Source: Mastigias papua
Taxonomy: Eukaryota; Cnidaria; Scyphozoa; Rhizostomeae; Mastigiidae
Direction: 5' to 3'
Assembly: GCA_964019165.1 (NCBI GenBank)
Contig: OZ025272.1
Location: forward strand, 1,519,128-1,583,127
DNA: 64,000 bases
Shown: in pieces, positions 1-64,000 of the stretch
How positions within the stretch are numbered: position 1 is the first letter of the stretch
Layout of the letters: each line of letters starts with the position of its first letter
Position numbers and translations under genes: made by a program
Notes under the pieces: model-generated
Databases searched by the model: none
The model's input: only the letters and a program-made list of their open reading frames with translations
Told to the model about the DNA's origin: nothing

Positions 1-236
1 AAACCTCTTTTGTAAACGAGCCTCGCTTAACTTCAGTTTGAAACTGACCATCGAAGTTTCCAGGAGGTCGGTAACGTGCTACGATGTATGTACACGGAAT
101 TCCATCGTGAGTTCCGGTTGCTTTTCCAATACCGAACTCTCTGCTTGATGACCAGACGACTTGAGTAAAATGACCGGTTTTCATTGTGAATTCCCCGCCT
201 TCAAAATCGTATCCAGGTTTGCAAACTTCTTCGTAC
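1..236 (-). CDS. CAP domain 23, second half (exon B23), cut by the window edge
   Basis: Acceptor gttttag|[32 protein letters not shown], then the frame runs open off the left edge at RGSFTKEV. The standard B exon would end about 40 nt further, so whether the protein ends here or continues is unknown. D22 and D23 share the FTMxTGHF loop and are sister copies. Confidence 0.78.

Positions 237-64000: not shown

What the first reader, a model, noticed from the sequence alone, without database searches (positions are those of the whole stretch)
1..64000. A single giant gene with at least 23 CAP domains in a string-of-beads layout
CAP proteins normally carry one domain, rarely two or a few. Here 50 exons on one strand, all with compatible phases and no stops, encode 23 CAP domains over about 6,780 codons, open at both ends. 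No start exon, signal peptide, stop or poly(A) signal is seen between modules. I know of no described CAP protein of this size. Chemically very different linkers between conserved cores suggest an extracellular scaffold or matrix protein, which is inference.
Basis: partly seen in the sequence, partly recalled or inferred. Interest (0 to 1): 0.92.

Follow-up and report, generated by a model that had tools for sequence, protein, structure and literature searches.

The report
Giant hydrozoan gene with 23+ CAP domains
This stretch of an animal (probably hydrozoan) genome is one very large gene for a probably secreted protein that strings at least 23 copies of the CAP domain on flexible linkers, far more than the eight copies that a review gives as the maximum, and smaller relatives exist in Hydra and probably Clytia.

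Summary
On the minus strand, 23 N-terminal and 23 C-terminal CAP half-exons alternate strictly; all 23 spliced domains match Pfam CAP. My model has 48 GT-AG exons, 6,678 codons and no stop. A|B introns are phase 2, module-to-module introns phase 1.

One gene is better supported than a cluster. Two exons read from one CAP through a linker into the next without splicing; for one, eight other proteins share that layout. No excess of signal-peptide first exons lies between modules. Module copies show Ka/Ks below 1.

Closest known proteins: uncharacterised Hydra LOC100206500 (8 CAPs) and a Clytia-type protein (5 CAPs). The window's last CAP pairs with Hydra's last CAP, so the stop probably lies just left of base 1.

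The metal tetrad survives in 20 of 23 CAPs, the sterol-loop motif in 2. Best guess: a secreted, metal/glycan-binding scaffold of the nematocyst or body surface; location and function are inferred. A review gives up to eight linked CAPs (PMC10189770). New variant of a known kind.

The parts
63514..64000 (-). exon 1 of window: non-CAP basic hydrophilic coding exon, cut by window edge, phase-1 donor
   Evidence: open frame; no Pfam domain; model
63108..63339 (-). CAP 1 A exon (alternative acceptor at 63381)
61687..62030 (-). CAP 1 B exon
61130..61376 (-). CAP 2 A exon
59881..60434 (-). CAP 2 B exon with linker (weak donor)
58283..58529 (-). CAP 3 A exon
57495..57814 (-). CAP 3 B exon
56429..56666 (-). 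CAP 4 A exon
54985..55301 (-). CAP 4 B exon
52284..52664 (-). predicted linker exon, phase 1/1
   Evidence: coding score; no Pfam domain
51343..51574 (-). CAP 5 A exon
49763..50130 (-). CAP 5 B exon
47880..48438 (-). linker (NSTESG repeats) + CAP 6 A
46948..47222 (-). CAP 6 B exon
44405..44819 (-). Lys/Glu/Asp-rich linker + CAP 7 A
43326..43597 (-). CAP 7 B exon
41784..42525 (-). linker + CAP 8 A
40517..40794 (-). CAP 8 B exon
38717..38821 (-). predicted small linker exon, phase 1/1 (weak)
37551..37953 (-). linker + CAP 9 A
36749..37023 (-). CAP 9 B exon
35239..35653 (-). Gly/Ser linker + CAP 10 A
34431..34705 (-). CAP 10 B exon
33766..34162 (-). Gly/Ser linker + CAP 11 A
32910..33184 (-). CAP 11 B exon
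32143..32560 (-). linker + CAP 12 A
30695..30969 (-). CAP 12 B exon
30025..30409 (-). Gly/Ser linker + CAP 13 A
28942..29216 (-). CAP 13 B exon
28236..28656 (-). Gly/Ser linker + CAP 14 A
27382..27656 (-). CAP 14 B exon
26583..27033 (-). linker + CAP 15 A
25974..26248 (-). CAP 15 B exon
24964..25414 (-). Gly/Ser linker + CAP 16 A
24219..24493 (-). CAP 16 B exon
23094..23568 (-). Gly/Ser linker + CAP 17 A
21400..21674 (-). CAP 17 B exon
20363..20744 (-). linker + CAP 18 A
18333..18607 (-). CAP 18 B exon
14283..14772 (-). Arg/Gly-rich linker + CAP 19 A
13244..13885 (-). fused exon: CAP 19 B + 63-aa linker + CAP 20 A, no intron between
11208..12281 (-). fused exon: CAP 20 B + 206-aa linker + CAP 21 A, no intron; same layout in 8 other proteins
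7720..10331 (-). CAP 21 B + start of the 989-aa Gly/Ala/Ser linker
6455..7036 (-). predicted Gly-rich linker exon, phase 1/1
6016..6250 (-). CAP 22 A exon
4565..4926 (-). CAP 22 B exon (sterol-loop motif present)
3439..3679 (-). CAP 23 A exon
1..236 (-). CAP 23 B exon, cut by window edge; domain groups with Hydra's last CAP (sterol-loop motif present)

Best explanation
One gene of a hydrozoan-type cnidarian encodes a single secreted polypeptide of more than 6,678 residues with at least 23 CAP domains. It is an expanded relative of the Hydra LOC100206500 protein (8 CAPs). The gene grew by tandem duplication of a two-exon module bounded by phase-1 introns, so modules can be added without breaking the frame. 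Each bead is a CAP domain of the GAPR-1/Pry1 type with at least four cysteines, counting the one just behind the core. The linkers are mostly low in complexity and probably disordered. Proposed working, inferred and not shown: most beads keep the His/Glu tetrad but not the sterol-loop motif, so the chain offers about twenty metal-dependent, glycan- or partner-binding, self-associating sites on one flexible string. It would act as a multivalent scaffold of a secreted structure, most likely the nematocyst capsule or tubule or a body-surface matrix. The last two CAPs, which keep the sterol-loop motif, may do a different, lipid-contacting job. Shown: gene structure at sequence level, domain identity, pairing of the C-terminal CAP with Hydra's, purifying selection. 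Inferred: one transcript, secretion, scaffold role, site of use.
For: Domains: 23/23 PF00188; profile hits GAPR-1 1smb at 5.7e-31 and Pry1 at 2.8e-24. One gene: fused CAP-linker-CAP exons, one with eight other proteins at 46-62% identity including linker motifs (five of the eight start at a Met inside the B half, so hold only its end); module-to-module introns phase 1 in 20/20, 19/20 on splice scores alone; no excess of ATG + hydrophobic + phase-1-donor exons between modules (2 of 22 gaps; controls 2 of 22, 2 of 23, 2 of 23). Relatives: Hydra isoforms with 8, 7 and 7 CAPs and a 5-CAP protein, with hydrophobic N termini by eye. C-terminal CAP pairs with Hydra CAP 8 at 99/98. One Cys in 22/22 linkers. 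Ka/Ks below 1 in 23 of 23 defined pairs of the 26 computed, below 0.3 in 19. Tetrad 20/23, sterol-loop motif 2/23. Literature, passages only: zinc at the two tetrad His drives GAPR-1 oligomerisation with heparin (PMC6900432); CAP domains found in many Hydra nematocyst proteins and suggested to be structural (PMC3627010); a GAPR-1-type CAP + TSP1 protein in red coral skeleton matrix (PMC7853314).
Against: No transcript of this organism was seen; joins across the 20 spliced gaps are predictions, and several sites score below zero (acceptors 58529, 51574, 37953, 20744, 6250; donor 59881). Poly(A) hexamers are denser between modules than in A-to-B introns on the coding strand (1.54 against 0.93 per kb). 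No related protein of 2,475-7,875 aa was found. CAP numbers differ greatly between lineages (23, 8, 5). CAPs 1-4 are divergent and group with a Clytia-type CAP and near insect and coral CAPs, not with Hydra CAP 1; 1, 3 and 4 lack the full tetrad. Hydra's own last two CAPs lack the sterol-loop motif, which weakens the idea of a special lipid role for CAPs 22-23. Main texts of Hydra basal-disc and mesoglea proteome papers do not mention CAP/SCP proteins. PMC3627010 itself sees no strong sign of a structural role for CAP domains in Nematostella. The organism is inferred.
Confidence: 0.6

Rival explanations
1. A tandem cluster of separate small CAP genes, as in the blowfly array of 16 genes, each with its own first exon, promoter and poly(A) site.
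For: Tandem CAP gene arrays are real (Lucilia cuprina, 16 genes in 53 kb, PMC7694928, passages). Poly(A) hexamers occur between modules, at 1.54 per kb against 0.93 in A-to-B introns on the coding strand.
Against: Two unspliced CAP-linker-CAP exons, one with the same layout in eight other proteins. Phase-1 splice sites at 19-20 of 20 spliced links. No signal-peptide first-exon excess. Hydra and Clytia-type models join 5-8 CAPs in one protein.
Confidence: 0.06
2. Two or three adjacent long multi-CAP genes rather than one (for example divergent CAPs 1-4 as one gene and the rest as another).
For: CAPs 1-4 are more divergent and group with a Clytia-type CAP, near insect and coral CAPs, apart from CAPs 5-22 (midpoint-rooted, weak branches). 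The gap between CAP 4 and CAP 5 is 3,503 bases and its two-exon link has the lowest score of the 20. The 18-to-19 gap is 3,869 bases.
Against: A coding-like phase 1/1 exon fills the 4-to-5 gap. No clear first exon there: the one candidate at 52379 has a donor score of 1.8 and modest hydrophobicity. Hydra joins a divergent first CAP to typical CAPs in one protein.
Confidence: 0.12
3. A polyprotein precursor cut in the linkers to release many single CAP proteins.
For: The Clytia-type relative has one furin-type site after CAP 1. Linkers look exposed and flexible by composition.
Against: Furin-type sites in only 1 of 22 window linkers and 0 of 7 Hydra linkers; a [KR]R pair in 4 of 22. Other proteases were not tested.
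Confidence: 0.12
4. A venom or lipid-scavenging protein: many CAP beads act as toxin-like or sterol- and fatty-acid-binding units on one chain.
For: CAP proteins occur in animal venoms and sea-anemone nematocyst discharge (PMC3627010). CAP domains can bind sterols and fatty acids (PMC7340583).
Against: The canonical sterol-loop motif is present in only 2 of 23 beads; the fatty-acid pocket was not tested. Great size and low-complexity linkers suit a structural role better (inference).
Confidence: 0.12
5. Assembly artefact or decayed repeat array.
For: CAPs 9-14 are nearly identical.
Against: The four longest self-matches are 85.6-92.5% identical, introns included. 0 stops in 6,678 codons. Ka/Ks below 1 in all 23 defined pairs.
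Confidence: 0.03

Closest known systems
Hydra vulgaris LOC100206500 (uncharacterised, isoforms X2-X4; P0029-P0031)
   Same: CAP beads joined by linkers; one Cys in 6 of 7 linkers; longest linker before the last two CAPs; last CAP pairs with the window's CAP 23
   Different: 8 or 7 CAPs and 2,163-2,362 aa, against at least 23 CAPs and more than 6,678 aa; middle CAPs expanded separately in each lineage
TCONS_00024097 protein (EukProt; Clytia attribution recalled from the name style; P0032)
   Same: 5 CAPs on long linkers, several Gly/Ala/Ser-rich; hydrophobic N terminus
   Different: fewer, more divergent CAPs; furin-type site after CAP 1; no CAP grouped with CAP 23
Raphidocelis subcapitata eight-CAP protein A0A2V0P999 (named in PMC10189770)
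   Same: many covalently linked CAP domains
   Different: green alga; eight CAPs; sequence not compared here
Three-CAP insect protein (Diorhabda LOC130445698, P0010)
   Same: several CAPs in one protein
   Different: three CAPs, short linkers, separate clade
NOWA, nematocyst protein with a CAP domain (PMC3627010), C-type lectin domain and minicollagen Cys-rich domains (PMC10014300)
   Same: medusozoan CAP-containing nematocyst protein
   Different: no lectin domain in the 22 exon frames scanned; linkers hold one Cys each; its CAP domain is described as highly derived
GAPR-1 / Pry1
   Same: closest solved CAP domains
   Different: single CAP domain

Membership tests
CAP superfamily (PF00188) | profile match of each domain | tested here: met
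   23 of 23 at E<=0.001
CAP superfamily (PF00188) | His/Glu tetrad | tested here: met
   all four in 20 of 23; incomplete in CAPs 1, 3, 4
CAP superfamily (PF00188) | alpha-beta-alpha sandwich fold | not tested
Sterol-binding CAP proteins (Pry1 type) | caveolin-binding motif OXOXXXXO in the loop | tested here: not met
   2 of 23 CAPs, numbers 22 and 23 only; binding itself not tested
Hydrozoan multi-CAP family (Hydra LOC100206500) | multiple CAPs on linkers in one protein | tested here: met
   predicted spliced frame
Hydrozoan multi-CAP family (Hydra LOC100206500) | C-terminal CAP shared with the Hydra protein | tested here: met
   CAP 23 with Hydra CAP 8, support 99/98
Hydrozoan multi-CAP family (Hydra LOC100206500) | N-terminal signal peptide | not testable with these tools
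   5' end lies outside the window; own-genome search unreachable
NOWA | C-type lectin domain and minicollagen Cys-rich domains | tested here: not met
   no such Pfam family in the 22 of 48 exon frames scanned or the 23 modules; one Cys in each of 22 linkers
CRISP | C-terminal Cys-rich ion-channel-regulator domain | tested here: not met
   only CAP found in the 22 exon frames and 23 modules; one Cys per linker; the end of the protein lies outside the window

The most novel reading that the evidence does not exclude
The CAP domain has been turned into the repeat unit of a giant structural protein: a metal- and glycan-dependent string of beads with silk-like Gly/Ala/Ser spacers that builds a hydrozoan secreted material (nematocyst wall or tubule, perisarc or glue), with lineage-specific gain and loss of beads tuning its size.
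Probability: 0.35. Interest if true: 0.72.

Novelty: new variant of a known kind. Interest (0 to 1): 0.55.

Why it matters
The shared molecular job of CAP domains is unsettled. A review reads linked CAP domains, up to eight, as a hint of a stoichiometric rather than catalytic role (PMC10189770). A protein with 23 or more beads, most with the metal tetrad and few with the sterol-loop motif, separates these two properties and gives a natural test of CAP domains as building blocks. It is also a clear case of exon-module (phase-1) expansion in an animal gene.

Tried and rejected
Separate-gene cluster: looked for signal-peptide first exons and poly(A) hexamers between modules. My first threshold would have missed the Hydra N terminus, so I loosened it; no excess either way. 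The hexamer density was higher than in A-to-B introns but lower than on the other strand, so I draw nothing from it. Polyprotein: furin-type sites in 1 of 22 linkers. Assembly duplication: introns have diverged. Sterol binder: motif in 2 of 23. Giant annotated relatives of 2,475-7,875 aa: none at E<=1e-5 among 977 candidates. Literature: ten searches listed no paper that I recognised as describing this protein; LOC100206500 occurs in 0 papers; one search was swamped by unrelated hits for one term, partly. The library lacks most subscription papers; the Hydra nematocyst proteome paper is not held. Term searches inside the Hydra basal-disc, Hydra mesoglea, Nematostella matrisome, Hydractinia venom, Hydractinia cell-atlas and nematocyst-proteomics papers gave nothing on CAP arrays (the last mentions CRiSPs in myxozoan nematocysts). 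Of the papers cited I saw passages; of the rest only listings.

Full report
WHAT IS THERE. HMMs built from two half-domain seeds found 23 A (N-terminal) and 23 B (C-terminal) half-CAP exons, all on the minus strand, strictly alternating from A at 63322 down to B at 8. Five simulated windows with the same dinucleotide frequencies gave no hit below 1e-3. Every A exon has a phase-2 donor inside a Trp codon (TG|GT) and every B exon an AG|G acceptor. Joined, 23 of 23 are in frame and match Pfam CAP. The invariant columns include the tetrad Glu of GEN and Cys 58, 77 and 124 of the first sequence.

ONE GENE. The full model has 48 exons, 6,678 codons, no stop, only GT-AG introns, and phases alternating 1 and 2 apart from linker and fused exons. 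For the 20 spliced module-to-module links the best choice was phase 1 in all 20 when all three phases were allowed; with coding potential left out it was 19 of 20. Two links need no splicing: exon 13244-13885 runs CAP 19 B - linker - CAP 20 A, and exon 11208-12281 runs CAP 20 B - linker - CAP 21 A. The second has eight relatives in other sources with the same layout and conserved linker motifs (46-62% identity); three of the eight hold the whole B half, five start at a Met inside it. The first has relatives too (P0015, P0016, P0018). P0002 and P0015 are listed with the same longest contig length (88,721), consistent with the two exons being neighbours there. The number of species behind these proteins is unknown.

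A cluster of secreted proteins would need a signal-peptide exon before each A exon. With relaxed thresholds, 2 of 22 gaps on the coding strand hold a candidate, as in the controls (2 of 22, 2 of 23, 2 of 23). Poly(A) hexamers are no help: 1.54 per kb in these gaps on the coding strand, 2.35 on the other strand, 0.93 and 2.66 in the A-to-B introns.

RELATIVES. In the 770-2,450 aa class four proteins of 1,814 candidates passed 1e-5: Hydra vulgaris LOC100206500 X3, X2, X4, and TCONS_00024097 (Clytia attribution recalled from the name style). My HMMs count 8, 7, 7 and 5 CAPs; Pfam counts the same. They start with hydrophobic stretches that look like signal peptides (by eye; no predictor run). In a 41-row tree CAP 23 pairs with Hydra CAP 8 (99/98), while Hydra CAPs 2-6 form their own group (100/97) and window CAPs 9-18 theirs (89/96, under the starred level). 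CAPs 1-4 group with a Clytia-type CAP (95/87), near insect and coral CAPs (midpoint root, long branches). So the C-terminal bead is old and the middle beads multiplied separately. Both proteins have their longest linker before the last two CAPs (989 aa; 596 aa). The organism is therefore probably a hydrozoan (inference). No related protein of 2,475-7,875 aa was found.

GROWTH OF THE ARRAY. Among the 45 longest listed self-matches, those between modules 9-15 are about 0.5-2 kb long, introns included, at 82-94% identity. NG86 Ka/Ks over 26 distinct pairs: defined for 23, below 1 in all 23, below 0.3 in 19, highest 0.84 (CAPs 9 and 10, 4 synonymous differences); three pairs had saturated Ks. Gene conversion could bias these values. 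Linkers before CAPs 12 and 15 are near-identical although the cores fall in different subgroups, so modules have been reshuffled.

HOW IT MAY WORK. All four tetrad residues are kept in 20 of 23 CAPs (not 1, 3, 4); the sterol-loop motif only in CAPs 22 and 23, and Hydra's last two CAPs lack it. Zinc binding at the two tetrad His drives heparin-dependent oligomerisation of GAPR-1 (PMC6900432, passages), and the aromatic loop is needed for sterol binding (PMC10189770; PMC7340583). Linkers have one Cys each (22 of 22), just after the B core and thus probably part of the bead, and are otherwise Cys-free; many are Gly/Ser, Lys/Glu, Arg/Gly or Gly/Ala-rich. Disorder was not predicted with a program. 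CAP domains were reported from many Hydra nematocyst proteins and suggested to be structural; the same paper doubts that role for Nematostella (PMC3627010, passages). A scaffold in the nematocyst or surface matrix is the most economical reading, not a demonstrated one.

NOVELTY. A review gives up to eight linked CAP domains (PMC10189770). Two to three are reported in Trichuris (PMC9778506), two in a Lucilia protein (PMC7694928), three in one beetle protein. At least 23 is far beyond these, and the Hydra relative is uncharacterised and in no held paper by its locus name. The architecture is not wholly new, hence new variant of a known kind.

LIMITS. No transcript evidence; some weak splice sites; CAP 1's acceptor is ambiguous (63339 or 63381, both phase 1); three linker exons and the CAP 2-3 donor are predictions. 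Gene ends lie outside the window, and the own-genome search could not be reached in eight tries.

Noticed in passing
31279-31557 and 39393-39670: A tRNA-Cys-like hit (31457-31531, plus) lies in a 281-bp unit with an inverted 85% identical copy: probably a tRNA-derived SINE, not a tRNA gene.
   Followed up: partly
48574-49506: 24-bp minisatellite, about 39 copies, in the intron between CAP 5 and CAP 6; it reads open in the CAP 5 B frame (TFLVTLHI repeats) but beyond the chosen donor.
   Followed up: partly
1700-2100: Minus-strand words that look like a LINE reverse transcriptase inside the intron between the A and B exons of CAP 23, read by eye; not tested with a profile.
   Followed up: no
63339-63381: An alternative, better-scoring acceptor would add a hydrophobic stretch ([13 protein letters not shown]) before CAP 1; probably just the pyrimidine tract.
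   Followed up: partly
14510-14772: The linker before CAP 19 is a strongly basic Arg/Gly repeat (net charge +19), unlike its neighbours before CAP 18 (-9) and CAP 20 (-3).
   Followed up: no
P0029 vs P0031 (Hydra): Hydra isoforms X3 and X4 differ by one CAP, joined inside the B half at GHFTQVVWK, which is not an exon border in this window: possible model or assembly variant.
   Followed up: no
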